DNA from: an uncultured Lachnospiraceae bacterium
GTDB lineage: Bacteria; Bacillota_A; Clostridia; Lachnospirales; Lachnospiraceae
Direction of reading: 5' to 3'
Assembly (NCBI GenBank): GCA_902767195.1
Contig: CACXGS010000208.1
Coordinates: 1 to 7,059 of the forward strand
DNA: 7,059 nt
The notes below the pieces were generated by a model. The model was not told the origin of the DNA and did no database searches. It saw nothing but the letters and a program-made list of their open reading frames with translations. Positions 1-7,059 of this stretch are shown in pieces. Position numbers and translations under genes: made by a program. How positions within the stretch are numbered: the stretch's first letter is position 1; every line of letters starts with the position of its first letter.

Positions 1-845
1 ACGGGAAACATACAAAAGATCAGAAAAGATCCAAACACTAGGGCGCTATAAGGTGTCAGAGGCCATCCCTCGACCACAATCCTTGGATTGTATCTTGAGA
101 AAACATATCCTTTGGAGGCTCCGAAAAGAGTGAGCCCGAAAAAGAATACCATAGCCGCGAGACAATAACCGTCCCGGCCGTCAAAGTGAAAAATAGCAAA
201 GGCGGTCCTCCCCTTTTCGCCATAACCGCGGCATTTCATGGAATCAGCCGTCTCTATGGCATTTTCCAGAGCCCAGGTCACCAGAATAGAAAAAATGGTG
301 ATACCATGTCTGATCCTGGATAAAATGTTACCGTTGGATATACTTCTCCCCACACATTTCTGTCCGTCGGCAATCACACCTGCCTGACGGGCAAAATGGG
401 GCACAAATCGCAGGGCCATGGAAAGGACCAGGGAAAGGGCCGGAATGATCCGGCCAAACAGATAAATGAATTTGTCCGAGGTCATCACTTCCGTGTAGCA
501 GGAAAACCATGTAATGACAGCCGCCAGCATCAGCGCCATAATCAATCCATAGACACAGCTCTCCAGAGTAAAGGGATTGCCGTTGGACAGATATCCCAGA
601 ATGGTCACGCCGTAATGATTGAACATGGGGTTGACCGCTGCCGCGATAATCATCACCGGCAAAGTAAAGATCAGATTGTTTCTGATGGTTCTCCTCCAGC
701 CCTTTAAAAGAGCGGCATAGGATATGCCGCTGATCAGGGAAATGGCCAGGATAATGGGGTGGGTGACGAACATGGTCACCCCCAGCACCCCGGCAAAGAA
801 AAGGATATTATTTAGAGGATGATAAGTTGAAAACGTATCGCTCAT
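1..845 (-). CDS. ecfT: ECF transporter transmembrane subunit (EcfT/CbiQ family), 3' end missing
   Basis: Integral membrane coupling subunit of an energy-coupling factor importer. EcfT joins the two ATPase subunits to the substrate-binding S component. The gene starts at 845 and runs off the left edge, leaving 281 full codons with no stop. Several hydrophobic segments are visible, near residues 13-45, 55-72, 95-115, 130-147, 180-195, 228-243 and 265 to the edge. The family hallmarks are LRFVP at about 145-149 and SMKCRGYG at 202-209, which matches the second Ala-Arg-Gly coupling motif of EcfT. The corresponding first motif reads GQKCVG (161-166) and is degenerate. The start is supported by AGAGGG five to six bases upstream, directly after the stop of the DUF4430 lipoprotein gene. 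The 12-bp gap implies translational coupling. ATPase and S-component genes would be expected further left, outside the window. Corrinoid as substrate is inferred from the neighbours, not from this protein. Confidence 0.9.
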   Translation of the reverse strand, partial: MSDTFSTYHPLNNILFFAGVLGVTMFVTHPIILAISLISGISYAALLKGWRRTIRNNLIFTLPVMIIAAAVNPMFNHYGVTILGYLSNGNPFTLESCVYGLIMALMLAAVITWFSCYTEVMTSDKFIYLFGRIIPALSLVLSMALRFVPHFARQAGVIADGQKCVGRSISNGNILSRIRHGITIFSILVTWALENAIETADSMKCRGYGEKGRTAFAIFHFDGRDGYCLAAMVFFFGLTLFGASKGYVFSRYNPRIVVEGWPLTPYSALVFGSFLIFCMFP

Positions 846-860
846 ATGATTCCCTCTTTA
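846..860 (-). promoter_or_regulatory. Shine-Dalgarno site abutting the upstream stop codon
   Basis: On the minus strand the TAA stop of the lipoprotein gene (860-858) is followed at once by AGAGGGA (857-851), then five bases, then the ATG of the EcfT gene at 845. A ribosome terminating on the lipoprotein gene would sit on this site, so the two proteins are probably made in coupled amounts. The site also settles the EcfT start. Confidence 0.7.
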
Positions 861-2285
861 ATACATAGAGTTATCTCCTACGTCTTTACCCAGATCGCAG
901 GTGTATACCCAGTTGATCTCATCACCGTCAGATACGGTGTATTTGCTGCATCCGTAATTGGGGAACCAGCCGTTAACGTTGAACATCCAGCCGGAAAGCT
1001 CACCACAGTCAAATTCGTAGAGCTGGTTGATGCCTTCTACGTAGGCAGAATCATAGACGGGACTGTAGCTGGATTCCATGTGGATGCCCCGGTCTTTGCA
1101 TACTCTCTTTAATACGTCATGGACAGATTCTCCCGGGGAGAAGCTGACCGACACAGGCTTTAAGATCCAGCCGTTGGAGGGCACGAATTCTTCCTTGCCG
1201 CTGGTCAGATTATCCATGTTATTGAGGATGGTGGAACAGTTGATGGAAATGGTGCAGGTCCCCCCGGAACTGCCGCCGCTTCCTCCGCTGCCGTTTCCGC
1301 CACCGCCTCCGGAGCTGTCATTACCCCCTCCGGAACCGCCGGAATTGGTGATATCGTTGGGGATATCCGCCGCCTGATCATTCCCGGCGCCATTCGTGGC
1401 ATCGCTTCCGGACAAATCAGTGGAGCCATTGGCAGTATTGGCCGGATTATTACCGTTGGCGTTGGCATTGGCAATATTCTTAATCTGCTGATTAATCTCC
1501 GCCAGCTTATCCTCGTCGGTAATACCGCCCACAATATAACTGTCTCCTTCCAGAGACAGAACATGCATAGTAAGGACAGTAATGCCCGGTTTTGGTGCCT
1601 TTAGGCTTTCAATGGTCACCTTGGCCTCGGTGGTTTTTTCTGCCCCGGCATCCTTTTTATCTTTATCTTTTTTCTTATCTTTGGATGAGTCCTCTTCCTT
1701 GGGATCCGTAAAGATAGACACATCACTTACCTTGGCCAGTTTGGAATTCTGCTCTTTAAGGAGCATTCCCTTATCGGACTGCCAGGCTTCGGGAAGTTCT
1801 ACCTCCAGAGTGGGAGAACAGATCAGGCCCTTGCCGTACATGGTCATCTTGAGGGCGTCATTGGCCTGATTGGCCTTTTTCTTGATATCATCAAGGTTCT
1901 TAGAATCAAAGGTAATCCGAAGGTTCTGATCTTCCGGGTTCTGAATCTGGCTGCAATCGTAGATCCAGGTGTAGCTGATTCCGTCTTCGGTTTTTCCGAC
2001 AAAACGGATCTCCCGGTTCTCTCCCACTACCGTTTCAAAACGTTCTTTTGTAATGATACCGTCTGCCGGAATGGGATTCTCATCCGCCAGGGGTTCTACA
2101 TTTTTGCCCCCGGAAGATTTCTTTTTCCCCGCCTTCTTTGTCTCCGTCTTGACGGGACGGTTCATCTCTTCCTGATTGGATGTAGCACAGGCCGTCAGGA
2201 ATACCAGGCAGCAGATCATCAGCAGACCGATGAAACGTCGTCCTCTTCTGCCGTGCTGATTCTTTAAACACATTTTTAAACGCAT
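858..2285 (-). CDS. DUF4430 (transcobalamin-C-like) surface lipoprotein, candidate corrinoid-binding subunit
   Basis: A 475-aa predicted lipoprotein. A basic N-terminus and a hydrophobic stretch (18-30) lead to a lipobox, L-T-A-C at 30-33, so Cys33 should be lipidated and the protein tethered outside the membrane. A Lys-rich segment (46-56) is followed by a globular region at about 78-255, with an internal Lys/Asp-rich stretch (196-213). This region has no family name I can assign with certainty. An Asn/Ala-rich spacer (about 270-305) and a Gly/Ser-rich linker (315-342) then lead to a C-terminal DUF4430 domain (about 343-466) carrying SGWMFNVNG (431-439), typical of this beta domain. DUF4430 is the family related to the C-terminal beta domain of transcobalamin and intrinsic factor. 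Six cysteines (344, 350, 396, 427, 446, 463) lie in the domain and could form disulfides outside the cell. The start is set by GGGAGGAG at 2292-2299, six bases upstream. It lies 40 bp behind the barrel protein and 12 bp ahead of the EcfT gene. Corrinoid binding is inferred. Confidence 0.85.
   Translation of the reverse strand: MRLKMCLKNQHGRRGRRFIGLLMICCLVFLTACATSNQEEMNRPVKTETKKAGKKKSSGGKNVEPLADENPIPADGIITKERFETVVGENREIRFVGKTEDGISYTWIYDCSQIQNPEDQNLRITFDSKNLDDIKKKANQANDALKMTMYGKGLICSPTLEVELPEAWQSDKGMLLKEQNSKLAKVSDVSIFTDPKEEDSSKDKKKDKDKKDAGAEKTTEAKVTIESLKAPKPGITVLTMHVLSLEGDSYIVGGITDEDKLAEINQQIKNIANANANGNNPANTANGSTDLSGSDATNGAGNDQAADIPNDITNSGGSGGGNDSSGGGGGNGSGGSGGSSGGTCTISINCSTILNNMDNLTSGKEEFVPSNGWILKPVSVSFSPGESVHDVLKRVCKDRGIHMESSYSPVYDSAYVEGINQLYEFDCGELSGWMFNVNGWFPNYGCSKYTVSDGDEINWVYTCDLGKDVGDNSMY
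1260..1343 (-). repeat. Gly/Ser-rich low-complexity linker inside the lipoprotein gene
   Basis: Codons 315-342 of the DUF4430 lipoprotein encode almost only Gly and Ser with a few Asn and Asp. The DNA is a run of imperfect GC-rich short repeats. It separates the N-terminal region from the DUF4430 domain and probably works as a flexible tether. Its length may vary between strains through slippage. Confidence 0.75.
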
Positions 2286-2325
2286 ATGTATCTCCTCCCG
2301 TTCTCAGCGTGTGATCAGGTTCTGG

Positions 2326-4497
2326 TTATTTTCCCTTTTTCTTTTTCTTCGTCTTTTCCTCTTTCCTGCCAAGTTTTGCAGGCAGAAGGAAAAATGCTGC
2401 GCAGGCTCCTCCACCAAGGCCGGCTGCCAGAGGAACGGTCCAGATGGGCACGCCGGACTTTTTCATGTTGTCGACACTTTCTATATTCAGGCCTGCCTCT
2501 GTGGTGGCCTCTTCCTGATCCGGATCATAATCTTCAAACAGACTGTCACCAGTTTCCTCGCCGAATTCCGGAATATAGTCCTCCCCGTCGAAAGACCAGG
2601 CTTCGGCCTCGGTGCTTTCTTCCGCTTTGTCATCCTTTTTATTATCCGTATTCTGTCCGGACTGACCTCCCTGATTCGCAGAATTGTTCTGGGAATTCAC
2701 GGTTTGTCTGGCAGCATTCTGGTTCGTGTTGCTGCCCTGGGGAAGCCGCTGCTGACTGGTCGACTGGTTCCGGTTTGTTCCACCATAGACAATGACCGTA
2801 CAGGTTGAGCTCCTGCCACTTCCATCGGCTGCCCTGGCAGTGATGGTCGCTGTTCCCGAAGAGCGGCCGGTCACTTTACCGGAGGAGTCTACCGAAGCCA
2901 CACTGCTATTGGAAGAAGACCATTTGACTTTACGGTTAGAAGCATTGGAAGGCAGGACGGTTGCGGAAAGACTGCGTGATGAACCGGCTGCCAGAGATAT
3001 CTGCTTGTAATTGATTCCCACCGAGCTAACCTTGATGGTACTGCCGGATTGACTCTTATTGCTTCCGGACTGTTTCTTGCCGGTGCTGGCTCCGGAAGTA
3101 GTATTCTTAACAGTGACGGTACATGTTGCCTTCTTTTTGCTTCCGTCTTTCGCGGTAACTGTAATTTTGGCTGTTCCTGCTTTGACGGCTTTGACCACAC
3201 CTTTCTGGGTTACCGTGGCAACTTTCTTGTTGGAGCTTGACCATGTCACATTTTTGTTCGAAGCATTTTTGGGGGTAACAGTAACTTTTAGAGTCTGGCT
3301 CTTCCCTTTTTTAAGGGTCAGTTTGGTTTTATCCAGAGTCAGTTTGGTTACCGGTACCTTGCTGTCTGTTTCTTTTTTGGAAGGAGTATCCGGCTTGCCA
3401 CCGGCAGAGAGACTGATATCACTCATATCATATATAGAAGTGTCTCCATTCAGCATTCTTACATAAGCGACTACAGCACACATACCCTGTTCGGTAGCCA
3501 TACCATCCAGAGTTCCACCTGCACCACCGCCATTGTTGACAGAGCCTGAAACATGCATGAAACCTCCTTCTCTTAAATAATATTCAAAAAGGCGGCTCAT
3601 GGGCCAGGCACCATTCTTAATGAAACGGGTGTCTTTGGCCGGGTCAATCCCCAGGGCCGCAAAGGCTATAATTGCCTGGGAACAGCTCTCGGAAGTTTCC
3701 AGCTCTCCGGTTCCATTTAAGGTTCCGAAGCCACCGGATGCATATTGTTTGATGGACAACCAGGTAAGTGCCCGGTCTATGGCAGCAGTAACCTTTTCCC
3801 TTCCCTCCATGCCATAATAGGGAGCAAGGGCCTGAATGGTCATGGCAGTGATATCCACGTCCGGAGTGTCTCCATAGAGGGTCCATCCTCCGTGGGCTAC
3901 TTTAGAATTCACTTCTCTTGCAAGAATATATTCAATGATCTTTTCTTCTGTGGTGGGATTGGCCGCGCCTGTGACCCCTGTGAAATAATAGTCGGGATGG
4001 GAATGAAGAGCGATCAGGGCCCAGACCGGCCCGTTAAAGCCCTGTTTCTGCAGATATTTGAAATCATCCAGATAGTCGAACAGATTATGTCCGTAAATAC
4101 TGCGGGCATCCTTGCCGATAACCGTCATGGCAAGGATCAGCTTGGAATAGTCGGAGGACCGGTTGGTATCCAGATCCCAATTGTTGTCAATCATGTAATT
4201 GACAATATTATCGTAAAACTCTTTCTTATAATTATCCGGAATACCAAGAGGACTCCTGGCCATACCAATGGCATTCCATATGCTGGCATAATCCGGATCT
4301 TTGTCCTTGGACAACATGTAATTACGAACAGACCGGATCACGGTCTCTGTAGACGGACTGAGGGTACGGGCAGGAACATCCGCTGCCCTGGAAGGGACTA
4401 CCTTATAGTTCCATCCCAGAAGCAGGCTGAAGGCAAAGAAAAGGATGGTCAGGCGAAAACAGACCCTTATTCGGTTGTAGATATTACCATGTCCCAT
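2326..4497 (-). CDS. Surface protein: alpha/alpha-barrel (prenyltransferase-like) domain, two BIG2 domains, C-terminal membrane anchor
   Basis: A 723-aa exported protein. A signal peptide (hydrophobic about 14-29) probably ends after S-R-A at residue 38. Residues 45-360 form a helical-repeat domain of the prenyltransferase/squalene-oxidase-repeat type, with GGWTLYGDTPDVDITAM (203-219), ASGGFG (253-258), an ETSESCSQAI helix (267-276), GGFMHV (311-316) and ATEQGMCAVVAYVRMLNG (334-351). The same fold makes the B12-holding barrel of intrinsic factor and transcobalamin. A catalytic DxDD motif of class II terpene cyclases is absent: the position reads D-V-D-I (213-216). Two BIG2 domains follow (382-464 and 488-570), each with W-S-S-S-N. 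Then come an Asn/Gln/Ser-rich stretch (571-618), an acidic stretch (620-675), one membrane segment (683-706) and a Lys-rich tail. No LPXTG signal is present. GGAG seven bases before the ATG supports the start. The gene heads the operon with the DUF4430 lipoprotein and EcfT. Corrinoid capture is inferred from this pairing and from nearby cbiZ. Confidence 0.88.
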   Translation of the reverse strand: MGHGNIYNRIRVCFRLTILFFAFSLLLGWNYKVVPSRAADVPARTLSPSTETVIRSVRNYMLSKDKDPDYASIWNAIGMARSPLGIPDNYKKEFYDNIVNYMIDNNWDLDTNRSSDYSKLILAMTVIGKDARSIYGHNLFDYLDDFKYLQKQGFNGPVWALIALHSHPDYYFTGVTGAANPTTEEKIIEYILAREVNSKVAHGGWTLYGDTPDVDITAMTIQALAPYYGMEGREKVTAAIDRALTWLSIKQYASGGFGTLNGTGELETSESCSQAIIAFAALGIDPAKDTRFIKNGAWPMSRLFEYYLREGGFMHVSGSVNNGGGAGGTLDGMATEQGMCAVVAYVRMLNGDTSIYDMSDISLSAGGKPDTPSKKETDSKVPVTKLTLDKTKLTLKKGKSQTLKVTVTPKNASNKNVTWSSSNKKVATVTQKGVVKAVKAGTAKITVTAKDGSKKKATCTVTVKNTTSGASTGKKQSGSNKSQSGSTIKVSSVGINYKQISLAAGSSRSLSATVLPSNASNRKVKWSSSNSSVASVDSSGKVTGRSSGTATITARAADGSGRSSTCTVIVYGGTNRNQSTSQQRLPQGSNTNQNAARQTVNSQNNSANQGGQSGQNTDNKKDDKAEESTEAEAWSFDGEDYIPEFGEETGDSLFEDYDPDQEEATTEAGLNIESVDNMKKSGVPIWTVPLAAGLGGGACAAFFLLPAKLGRKEEKTKKKKKGK
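2788..3036 (-). repeat. Second BIG2 (bacterial Ig-like) domain
   Basis: Codons 488-570 of the barrel protein encode a BIG2 domain with VKWSSSN (524-530), SVASV (532-536) and GTATIT (548-553). It is a diverged copy of the domain at 3106-3354. This copy is rich in Ser and Arg where the first is rich in Lys, so the duplication is old or the two are under different selection. Its likely role is a rigid stalk that lifts the barrel away from the membrane through the cell wall. Confidence 0.85.
3106..3354 (-). repeat. First BIG2 (bacterial Ig-like) domain
   Basis: Codons 382-464 of the barrel protein encode a BIG2 domain with the usual order of features: KLTLDKTKLTLKKG (385-398), VTWSSSN (417-423), KVATV (425-429) and GTAKITVTAKDGS (441-453). 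It is strongly Lys-rich and sits directly after the barrel domain. Confidence 0.88.
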
Positions 4498-4730: not shown

Positions 4731-6083
4731 TTAATAATATTGATATCTCTCCCTTTTCCGGGCCAGAAAACAGACTGCCAGAAGAAAGGCGGCAGTTTCC
4801 GCGGCGATGATGGCCCACCATATTCCATCCAGGCCGAAAATGGAGGGAAGAAGCAGAATACTGGAGCTCTCAAATACAAATGTTTTCAGGAAAGAGATCA
4901 GGGCAGAGATCTTCCCGTTCTCCAGGGCGGTAAAGAGGGAGGAGATAAAGACAGCGTAGCCTCCCGGCAGAAATGACAGGGAATAGATATAGAAGGCATG
5001 AAGAGTAAGCCGAAAAAGGCCCTGGTCGTACCCTGCAAAAATACCGGTAACAGGACTCCCGAAGACCCGGACCAGCAGCATCATGGCCAGACTGAAGCTT
5101 CCGATCACTCTTACACTTATGTGGAAAAGATTCTTCAGCTCGTCCGTATCTCCTGCACCATTATGGTAACTGATAACCGGAGAGCATCCGGCACTGTATC
5201 CGTAGTAGCAGGAAGAGAAAAGGTAGCCTGCATAGATAATAATCCCGTAAGCAGCCACACCATCTGCCCCGGCATAGCGCATGAGCTGATAGTTATAAAG
5301 GGCGGAGATGACGGAGGCCGCTATGGTATTTACCATCTCCGAAGAACCGTTGGTACAGGTCCGAAGGATAATCTGCCCGGAAAACCGGGGCCGTCTGAAA
5401 CGAAGCAGGCTGTCATTCTTCCGGCCAAAATATATCAGTTCCAGTAATACACCGGCGGATTGACTGATGGCCGTAGCAAAAGCAACTCCGGCAAGACCCC
5501 ACCGGAAACCTATCACAAAAACCACATCCAGCAGGACGTTCAATGTTCCCGAAAACACACTCATATAGAGTCCCAGTCTGGGCTTCTGGGCAGTGATAAA
5601 GAAGCTGTGAAACATGTTGGAAAGCATATAGCATGGCAGTGTGATCAGAACGATCCTTCCGTAGACCACAGAGTCAGTAAGAATAGGACCGTGTCCTCCC
5701 ATGAGTCCCAGTGCGGGACGGATCAGAATCAAGCCAAGAAAAGCCAGGACCAGTCCCGCTGTCGCAGTAAAAAGGGCAATCAGAGTAAAATATTCCTCTG
5801 CCAGCTCCTTTTTCCCTTCTCCCAGGGCAAAAGCGACGATGGCTGAGCCGCCGGATCCTGCCATATAACCTACTGCTCCCATTATAAATAAGAGAGGCAT
5901 AACAAAGTTGATGGCCGCAAAGGGAATCTTCCCCACATAATTGGATACAAAAAAGCCGTCCACCACACTGTATATGGATGAAGTGATCATCATGATAATA
6001 GTCGGAAAGACAAATCTTATGATACGACCATAGGTGAAGTGGTCTGCAAGCTGGATTTTGTTCTTAGATATGTCCTTATCCAT
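4731..6083 (-). CDS. MATE-family multidrug/organic-cation exporter (MepA-like)
   Basis: A 450-aa polytopic membrane protein of the usual length for the MATE family, with about 12 hydrophobic segments in two homologous halves. The N-half signature around SIYSVVDGFFVSNYVG (36-51), followed by the AAINFVMPL segment (56-64), is typical of MepA-like Firmicute MATE proteins. The second half shows AAYGIIIYAGYLFSSCYYG (277-295), the region matching that signature, and SPVISYHNGAG (301-311). MATE proteins export cationic or amphipathic compounds using Na+ or H+ gradients; the substrate cannot be read from sequence. The start at 6083 is supported by GGAGG (6096-6092) eight bases upstream. It lies on the same strand as the corrinoid operon, 233 bp before it, with promoter candidates in between. 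It may therefore be an independent gene or an unlinked passenger. No intrinsic terminator was seen after its stop. Confidence 0.92.
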   Translation of the reverse strand: MDKDISKNKIQLADHFTYGRIIRFVFPTIIMMITSSIYSVVDGFFVSNYVGKIPFAAINFVMPLLFIMGAVGYMAGSGGSAIVAFALGEGKKELAEEYFTLIALFTATAGLVLAFLGLILIRPALGLMGGHGPILTDSVVYGRIVLITLPCYMLSNMFHSFFITAQKPRLGLYMSVFSGTLNVLLDVVFVIGFRWGLAGVAFATAISQSAGVLLELIYFGRKNDSLLRFRRPRFSGQIILRTCTNGSSEMVNTIAASVISALYNYQLMRYAGADGVAAYGIIIYAGYLFSSCYYGYSAGCSPVISYHNGAGDTDELKNLFHISVRVIGSFSLAMMLLVRVFGSPVTGIFAGYDQGLFRLTLHAFYIYSLSFLPGGYAVFISSLFTALENGKISALISFLKTFVFESSSILLLPSIFGLDGIWWAIIAAETAAFLLAVCFLARKRERYQYY

Positions 6084-6192: not shown

Positions 6193-6225
6193 AACTGTCT
6201 TTCTATTCTATAAGGGGTATTGTCT

Positions 6226-7059
6226 ATGATCATTCACAAGCTCACTGACGGGGATACTGTTCACAAATATAATCAATGTATTGTTGTTCTCTTTTCAGGT
6301 AAGCGTCATGTCATCAGTACCGGCCCCAATAACGGGGGATACCGGGAGGACCTCCAGGCTGTTTTCAACCAGGATGCCAATCCCGGTCCTGGTATGCCCT
6401 GTGTGCTCAAGGGTGACACTTACGAGAGCCACATGAATGTGGTGGCACTGGAAGATCTGGGTCTTCCGCCAGACCGGTGCTCCGGCCTGTGCACTGCTGC
6501 AAGTATGGAGAATGCTTCGATACAGTCCCTCTCCTTCCGGGATCTTACTGTTACTGCTATCGTGACTGCCGGTATTGAACACAATGGCGGTCGGGCAGGT
6601 GATCCGGCAACTTTTTATGAGGAGAAAGGCTCATTTCAACCTGTTGCCCATGGGCCCGGAACAATCAACATTATTGTCCATACCAATGCCTCCCTTAGCC
6701 AGGGAGCCCTGGCAAGAACCCTGATTACCGTTTCCGAGGCAAAGTGCGCTGCCTTGCAGGAATTGATGGTGCCAAGCCACAACTCTTCCGGACTGGCAAC
6801 AGGGTCCGGGACCGATGGGATTATCAGTATCTGCAACCCCTCATCTCCCCTGGCTTTGACCAATGCCGGGAAGAACAGTAAGCTGGGTGAACTGATCGGG
6901 AAAACAGTGAAAGCCGCAGTCAAAGAATCTCTGCTCCGGCAAACCGGACTCTGCCCGGACAGGCAGAGAAACATCCTTCGGATCATGGGCCGGTTCGGCA
7001 TCGATGGAAATAAACTGTGGGAAAAGTGGAATCGTTGCCATGATAATGGCTGGAATAAG
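6226..7059 (+). CDS. cbiZ: Adenosylcobinamide amidohydrolase CbiZ, 3' end missing
   Basis: CbiZ cleaves the amide bond linking the aminopropanol arm to the corrin ring in adenosylcobinamide and, in some bacteria, in pseudocobalamin, releasing adenosylcobyric acid for rebuilding into the preferred cobamide. It is a cytoplasmic salvage and remodelling enzyme. The reading frame is open from the ATG at 6226 to the window edge: 278 codons, no stop. Family features are TAGIEHNGGRAGDP (114-127), GTINIIVHTNASLSQGALAR (145-164), VSEAKCAALQEL (169-180) and SSGLATGSGTDGII (187-200), the conserved CbiZ core, then GELIGKTVKAAV (221-232). After about residue 240 a basic extension rich in Arg and Trp continues past the edge and is not part of the core I recognise. 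AAGGGG eight bases upstream supports the start. It is divergent from the MATE gene and about 1.7 kb from the surface-protein operon. Its presence is the strongest pointer to corrinoids as the theme of this locus. Confidence 0.9.
   Translation, partial: MIIHKLTDGDTVHKYNQCIVVLFSGKRHVISTGPNNGGYREDLQAVFNQDANPGPGMPCVLKGDTYESHMNVVALEDLGLPPDRCSGLCTAASMENASIQSLSFRDLTVTAIVTAGIEHNGGRAGDPATFYEEKGSFQPVAHGPGTINIIVHTNASLSQGALARTLITVSEAKCAALQELMVPSHNSSGLATGSGTDGIISICNPSSPLALTNAGKNSKLGELIGKTVKAAVKESLLRQTGLCPDRQRNILRIMGRFGIDGNKLWEKWNRCHDNGWNK

What the first reader, a model, noticed from the sequence alone, without database searches (positions are those of the whole stretch)
1..4497. Split intrinsic-factor/transcobalamin-like corrinoid capture system feeding an ECF importer
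Seen: one operon encodes an exported alpha/alpha-barrel protein, an exported lipoprotein with a DUF4430 domain, and an EcfT subunit, with gaps of 40 and 12 bp. Established: vertebrate intrinsic factor and transcobalamin bind B12 between an alpha6-alpha6 barrel and a C-terminal beta domain related to DUF4430; ECF transporters import vitamins including cobalamin. Inference: these two proteins are the two halves of an intrinsic-factor-like clamp, encoded separately but in the same order, which catches cobamides at the cell surface and passes them to the ECF complex. This would be a Gram-positive counterpart to the surface B12-capture lipoproteins of Bacteroides.
Basis: partly seen in the sequence, partly recalled or inferred. 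Interest (0 to 1): 0.88.

Follow-up and report, generated by a model that had tools for sequence, protein, structure and literature searches.

The report
Bacterial vitamin B12 capture-and-import operon
A bacterium, probably from a gut, carries an operon whose two membrane-tethered surface proteins look like the separated halves of our own vitamin B12 carriers and, in relatives, sit beside a B12-type importer, which could explain how many Gram-positive gut bacteria catch B12.

The parts
3..845 (-). EcfT, transmembrane coupling subunit of an ECF importer (3' end cut by the window edge)
   Evidence: 20-member profile hits EcfT chains of solved ECF transporters (5d3m_D 1e-15; the same sequence is in 6fnp); 13 of 20 members match PF02361; no Pfam hit for the window copy alone.
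858..2285 (-). Lipoprotein: signal and lipobox (C33), N-terminal beta domain, Gly/Ser linker, C-terminal DUF4430 domain
888..1259 (-). DUF4430 = transcobalamin-type beta-grasp domain of the lipoprotein (residues 343-466)
1518..2090 (-). N-terminal conserved beta domain of the lipoprotein (residues 66-256), fold not identified
2326..4497 (-). Secreted barrel protein with two Big_2 domains and a C-terminal hydrophobic anchor
3403..4365 (-). alpha/alpha-barrel (toroid) domain, residues 45-365
   Evidence: Homologous to the barrel of the folded L077 fusion (alignment A3; model, searches). The window's own barrel was not folded.
4731..6083 (-). MATE family transporter, same strand, 233 bp upstream of the barrel gene; role unclear
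   Evidence: PF01554 E 3.1e-32; gap.
6220..7059 (+). CbiZ, adenosylcobinamide amidohydrolase (probable ATG start at 6226; runs off the window), divergent
   Evidence: PF01955 E 5.7e-58. In L001, L008 and L013 CbiZ follows the operon on the same strand; in L031 it is upstream on the other strand.

Best explanation
This is the surface capture end of a dedicated corrinoid (vitamin B12 family) importer of a Gram-positive bacterium, probably a Lachnospiraceae-like gut organism judging by its nearest relatives. The barrel protein (secreted, anchored by its C-terminus, two Ig-like domains as a stalk) and the DUF4430 lipoprotein sit on the outer face of the membrane. The DUF4430 domain has the fold of the beta domain that holds B12 in transcobalamin and intrinsic factor; the barrel corresponds to their alpha domain. 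Most likely the two tethered proteins together enclose a cobamide or cobinamide and pass it to a CbrT-type S component, which EcfT and the EcfA-A' ATPases drive. Inside, CbiZ (and, in relatives, a possibly CbiR-like enzyme) trims the imported corrinoid for rebuilding. Shown by computation: gene order, domain families, fold of the DUF4430 domain and of a homologous fusion, CbrT kinship of S in relatives, riboswitches upstream in relatives. Inferred: binding, the clamp (my estimate about 0.5), hand-over, and the unseen left part of the window's operon.
For: S components of relatives: best PDB match CbrT 6fnp_A, 1.5e-9 single sequence, 1.5e-15 for a profile of 16 (next 4hzu_S 0.27), 2.1e-17 for a profile of 10 divergent ones (next RibU 1.1e-6). 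CbrT transports cobalamin and cobinamide (PMC5997447 passages). Cobalamin riboswitches: 17 above gathering score in 45 loci (714,786 bases), 16 of 17 on the operon strand, 13 upstream of the ORF chain that leads into the operon; about 24 per Mb, against 132 at E up to 0.001 (127 over cut-off) in about 74 Mb of 24 host genomes. CbiZ in the window and in 4 of 80 loci; of 24 host genomes 7 have CbiZ, 4 of these at the locus. Lipoprotein DUF4430 fold. Barrel-DUF4430 fusions in 25 ORFs, both orders; the folded fusion's top 15 PDB rows are all TC/IF/HC, 2.3e-12 to 4.4e-10, rank 16 being 3.8e-5. One barrel and no fusion seen in 3 of 7 near-relative genomes.
Confidence: 0.77

Rival explanations
1. Relay, not clamp: the barrel protein and the DUF4430 lipoprotein each act alone (or pair with other surface DUF4430 proteins) and hand corrinoid from one to the next, much as wall-anchored haem receptors pass haem inwards (recalled).
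For: 5np4 is titled as the transcobalamin beta domain alone bound to cyanocobalamin. Some loci hold a barrel-DUF4430 fusion plus a separate barrel plus the DUF4430 gene before EcfT, e.g. L031 (1617, 546 and 289 aa). L008 has a class B sortase by NCBIfam and L005 its homologue; L005, L008 and L010 have surface proteins ending in a VPKTGD-type signal. The lipoprotein has its own N-terminal domain. 16 of 80 loci have no detectable barrel.
Against: In 3 of 7 near-relative genomes there is one barrel match and no fusion seen, so any two-domain enclosure there must be split. In transcobalamin the two domains sandwich one B12 (PMC1796856 passage).
Confidence: 0.35
2. The system serves another ligand (cobalt, a corrinoid fragment such as a lower-ligand base, or an unrelated vitamin) and the B12 context is by association.
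For: Not every locus shows a riboswitch or CbiZ (32 of 45 scanned loci without a riboswitch upstream of the operon in the DNA held; CbiZ in 4 of 80). R. gnavus 3u7z, of the same beta-domain fold, is deposited as a putative metal-binding protein. The divergent S components also match RibU at 1.1e-6.
Against: CbrT is the nearest solved S component in all three searches made. Cobalamin riboswitches are about 13 times denser at the scanned loci than in 24 host genomes.
Confidence: 0.08
3. The barrel is an enzyme (terpene-cyclase or prenyltransferase type) or a wall-binding adhesin unrelated to ligand capture.
For: Best VIA neighbours of the homologous barrel are squalene-hopene cyclases; best profile hits of the barrel part are cyclases (1gsz 9e-11). 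Big_2 domains are common in adhesins (recalled).
Against: The DXDD motif of such cyclases (recalled) is absent from the window's barrel and found in 1 of 51 aligned rows; the site was not aligned to a cyclase. The protein is secreted, fused in nature to DUF4430 domains (25 ORFs) and encoded beside EcfT.
Confidence: 0.05

Closest known systems
Bacterial transcobalamin-like SLBB (DUF4430) proteins with alpha/alpha toroids beside CbiO/CbiQ genes (Burroughs et al. 2007, PMC1796856)
   Same: Same domain families, same transporter type, same predicted role: scavenging B12 or precursors; both domain orders noted in bacteria; animal proteins proposed to descend from them (passages).
   Different: In the passages read, the inference rests on sequence and gene context. 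Here the S component of relatives is found to be CbrT-like, riboswitches, CbiZ and a possible CbiR are mapped, folds are tested by models, and some genomes show only the split form. The paper says such bacteria usually lack key B12 biosynthesis genes; here 16 of 24 hosts have CbiC, the one marker tested.
Intrinsic factor / transcobalamin / haptocorrin of animals
   Same: Beta-domain fold; barrel plus beta-domain make-up in a fused relative.
   Different: Two separate, membrane-tethered proteins in the window; no sequence-level match; arrangement of domains not shown.
ECF-CbrT of Lactobacillus delbrueckii (6FNP, PMC5997447)
   Same: S component family of the relatives' operons; EcfT homologous.
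   Different: One operon holds ECF genes and surface proteins; the S components have an N-terminal extension; in 32 ORFs S is fused to both ATPases.
Bacteroides BtuG/BtuH surface B12 lipoproteins
   Same: Surface lipoproteins that would feed a B12 importer.
   Different: BtuG is a beta-propeller working with the outer-membrane BtuB (PMC6977713 passage); for BtuH only a listing was seen (PMC8941943), its different fold is recalled. An analogy, not kinship.
PDB 3u7z, R. gnavus RUMGNA_00854
   Different: A 96-residue chain, deposited as a putative metal-binding protein; ligand not known from the calls made.

Membership tests
DUF4430 / transcobalamin-like clade of SLBB | PF14478 match above the curated cut-off | tested here: met
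   61 bits against 23.8.
DUF4430 / transcobalamin-like clade of SLBB | Beta-grasp fold closer to the transcobalamin beta domain than to other beta-grasp proteins | tested here: met
Animal intrinsic factor / transcobalamin family | Both domains in one chain, barrel first | tested here: not met
   Separate genes in the window. Fusions exist in relatives.
Animal intrinsic factor / transcobalamin family | Match to the family's own Pfam model (PF01122, accession recalled) | tested here: not met
   Not listed for either protein at E up to 0.1.
Animal intrinsic factor / transcobalamin family | alpha/alpha-barrel that with the beta domain resembles the carrier as a whole | tested here: inconclusive
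   A homologous fusion hits TC/IF/HC first over both domains, but at rmsd 19-21 Å; by VIA the barrel is nearer to cyclases. The window's own barrel was not folded.
Animal intrinsic factor / transcobalamin family | Binds B12 between the two domains | not testable with these tools
   No complex or ligand modelling available.
ECF importer | EcfT, two ATPases and an S component | tested here: inconclusive
   EcfT in the window; ATPases and S lie left of position 1 and were seen only in relatives (52 of 80 loci have all five parts).
CbrT-type B12 S component | Nearest solved relative is CbrT | tested here: met
   In relatives only, not in the window.
Cobalamin-riboswitch regulon | RF00174 element upstream | tested here: not met
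   None in the window; found in 13 of 45 scanned related loci.
CbiR (for the TIM-barrel gene of relatives) | AP endonuclease 2 superfamily and place among cobamide genes | tested here: inconclusive
   PF01261 45.9 bits for L001, 29.3 bits, below cut-off, for L031; not compared with CbiR itself.
CbiZ | PF01955 match | tested here: met
   196.5 bits, E 5.7e-58.

The most novel reading that the evidence does not exclude
The operon encodes a two-part, membrane-assembled intrinsic-factor-type clamp: a stalked barrel and a DUF4430 lipoprotein that meet around a cobamide and then dock on a CbrT-type S component, so that closing of the clamp selects and delivers the ligand. It would represent the split state from which the one-chain carriers of bacteria, and by the 2007 proposal of animals, could have arisen.
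Probability: 0.4. Interest if true: 0.82.

Novelty: new variant of a known kind. Interest (0 to 1): 0.62.

Why it matters
How Gram-positive gut bacteria capture B12 is poorly known; a survey of gut genomes calls identification of their transport systems for B12 and precursors an open problem (PMC6593275, passage). This locus gives a concrete candidate found in many genomes, with a defined importer type, riboswitch control in relatives and two surface proteins that can be expressed. If right, it supplies living bacterial counterparts of intrinsic factor and transcobalamin, a test of the 2007 idea that animals got their B12 carriers from such bacteria, and an ECF importer that works with extracellular binding proteins, where usually the S component alone is the binder (PMC5997447 passage).

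Tried and rejected
Sequence-profile search of the PDB for IF/TC with the barrel (A3) and DUF4430 (A4) alignments: no IF/TC row; Big_2 domains and cyclases came up for A3, nothing convincing for A4. Riboswitch in the window: none, only two chance snoRNA rows at a permissive threshold. Whole genome of the window: not held. Fold of the lipoprotein's N-terminal domain: no convincing row, left open; the domain was not folded alone. Auxotrophy as an argument for scavenging: dropped, since 16 of 24 hosts have CbiC; CbiC alone does not prove a whole pathway. CbiR identity of the TIM-barrel gene: suggested by superfamily and place, no CbiR sequence was at hand, so not tested. A complex of the two window proteins could not be modelled, as the tool folds single chains; the natural fusion L077 was used instead. 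L081-L085 were fetched to check contig lengths; their genes were not analysed.

Papers, what was seen: PMC1796856 outline with abstract and passages; PMC5997447, PMC6593275, PMC6977713, PMC7733943 and PMC4350170 passages only; PMC6143338 and PMC8941943 as search listings with the start of the abstract. Paper searches that listed no experimental work on bacterial DUF4430 or toroid proteins as B12 binders, judged from the listings: (open-licence PMC papers only).
Full report
Observation. The window holds five genes. On the minus strand, read right to left: a MATE transporter (4731-6083), a secreted barrel protein (2326-4497), a DUF4430 lipoprotein (858-2285) and an EcfT cut by the window edge (3-845). 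On the plus strand, divergent from MATE, lies CbiZ (6220, more likely 6226, to 7059). Pfam confirms DUF4430 (61 bits), Big_2 (134 bits, two stretches), MatE and CbiZ (196.5 bits). EcfT has no Pfam or NCBIfam hit alone, but a 20-member family profile finds EcfT chains of solved ECF transporters at 1e-15 to 2.7e-12 and 13 of 20 members match CbiQ. CbiZ, a cobamide-remodelling enzyme (family knowledge), is not in the finding and is the first independent hint of the substrate.

Relatives. By their titles they are Bacillota, many from gut or rumen samples. Barrel, DUF4430 and EcfT occur together in 58 of 80; with EcfA-A' and an S component in 52 of 80; singly, EcfT 71, EcfA-A' 68, barrel 64, S 61, a TIM-barrel gene 12, CbiZ 4, SrtB homologue 3. 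DUF4430 is present in all 80 by selection. Among the loci nearest to the window, L001, L002, L012 and L013 run barrel, lipoprotein, EcfT, EcfA-A', S, TIM barrel (L012 with one more gene between barrel and lipoprotein); CbiZ follows in L001 and L013; in L003 neither TIM barrel nor CbiZ follows S within the DNA held. CbiZ is divergent and upstream in L031, much as in the window.

Substrate. The S component of L001 matches one S component in the PDB by sequence, CbrT (6fnp_A, 1.5e-9). A profile of 16 S components gives CbrT 1.5e-15, next 4hzu_S 0.27. A profile of 10 divergent ones gives CbrT 2.1e-17, next RibU 1.1e-6. CbrT imports cobalamin and cobinamide (PMC5997447 passages). Cobalamin riboswitches reach the gathering score 17 times in 45 scanned loci totalling 714,786 bases, 16 of 17 on the operon strand. 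Thirteen lie upstream of the ORF chain that leads into the operon; in five of these (L018, L021, L030, L040, L046) an unlabelled ORF comes first, and in four (L021, L025, L027, L028) my simple ORF caller puts a small opposite-strand ORF over or just after the element. One more lies further upstream in L031; those of L008, L013 and L015 lie elsewhere. That search also placed elements at or just beyond the upstream edge of the fetched DNA in L005, L008 and L010, one at L074, and one below cut-off before the barrel of L059. Against this, the window itself has none, and 32 of 45 scanned loci show none upstream of the operon in the DNA held. The TIM-barrel gene of L001 belongs to the AP endonuclease 2 superfamily, that of the cobamide-remodelling enzyme CbiR (PMC7733943 passages); identity with CbiR was not tested.

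Split or not. Fused barrel-DUF4430 ORFs occur in 25 of the 80 loci, in both orders (15 DUF-barrel, 5 barrel-DUF, 5 more complex). Among 7 genomes of loci near to the window, three (those of L001, L012, L013) gave exactly one barrel match, in this operon, and no ORF with matches to both domains, though each has one or two further weak DUF4430 matches elsewhere; those of L003 and L004 had 6 and 2 barrel matches; that of L002 had one, cut by a contig end; that of L007 none. In the first three the two-domain function, if it exists, must be split between two proteins. Completeness of these genomes is not given, and a single-sequence search can miss distant barrels.

Mechanism. Both proteins are exported and held at the membrane, the lipoprotein by its lipid and the barrel by a C-terminal hydrophobic stretch with a lysine tail (inferred from sequence). 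Some relatives have S-layer-type surface proteins (the L077 protein carries PF00395) or sortase-type ones: L005, L008 and L010 have proteins ending in VPKTGD-like signals, and L008 encodes a class B sortase. I take this as a family of surface devices that catch corrinoids and feed a CbrT-type ECF importer; in the window the device is the split barrel and DUF4430 pair. Binding, closure and hand-over are inferred. The main rival is a relay in which the two proteins bind separately.

Prior knowledge and novelty. Burroughs and colleagues described in 2007 the bacterial transcobalamin-like beta-grasp proteins, their fusion to alpha/alpha toroids in either order, their operons with CbiO-like and CbiQ-like genes, and proposed B12 scavenging and transfer to animals (PMC1796856). 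I saw no later experimental test in the listings of the searches made (open-licence papers only). Their remark that such bacteria usually lack key B12 biosynthesis enzymes is not borne out here by the one marker tested: 16 of 24 hosts have CbiC. The finding is a new variant of a predicted kind, with stronger evidence for the substrate and a split form of the carrier.

Noticed in passing
L024 11211-13913, L045 11292-13919, L059 11091-13931 and others: EcfA, EcfA' and the S component appear as one polypeptide of 809-1002 aa in 32 ORFs of the 81 sources scanned (Pfam-checked in three). A covalent tie of S to the ATPases seems at odds with models in which S leaves the ECF module during transport.
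   Followed up: partly
L014 9059-9973, L015 8937-9848, L016 8904-9845, L019 8910-9866: A second, S-like component is encoded just before the lipoprotein, in addition to the usual S after the ATPases (Pfam for L015).
   Followed up: partly
L005 14776-15573, L008 14892-15725; surface proteins of L005, L008, L010: A sortase gene beside the S component (class B by NCBIfam for L008; L005 by similarity to it) and surface proteins with VPKTGD-type ends, reminiscent of haem-uptake (Isd) loci (recalled).
   Followed up: partly
L027 8145-8777, likewise L024 and L028: A 210-aa protein between barrel and lipoprotein; in L027 it matches Pfam cohesin. L024 and L028 have an ORF of the same length there, not scanned.
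   Followed up: no
window 1518-2090 (lipoprotein residues 66-256): Strongly conserved N-terminal domain, modelled mostly as beta strands, no clear fold match.
   Followed up: partly
window 4731-6083: MATE transporter between CbiZ and the operon; a MATE gene also precedes the operon in L013. Possible link to corrinoid traffic not tested.
   Followed up: no
L012 7677-8810: A second protein with a partial DUF4430 match and an fn3-like region (below cut-off) between barrel and lipoprotein.
   Followed up: no
host genomes G001-G024: 16 of 24 hosts carry CbiC, so the operon is not confined to genomes without this B12 biosynthesis marker.
   Followed up: partly
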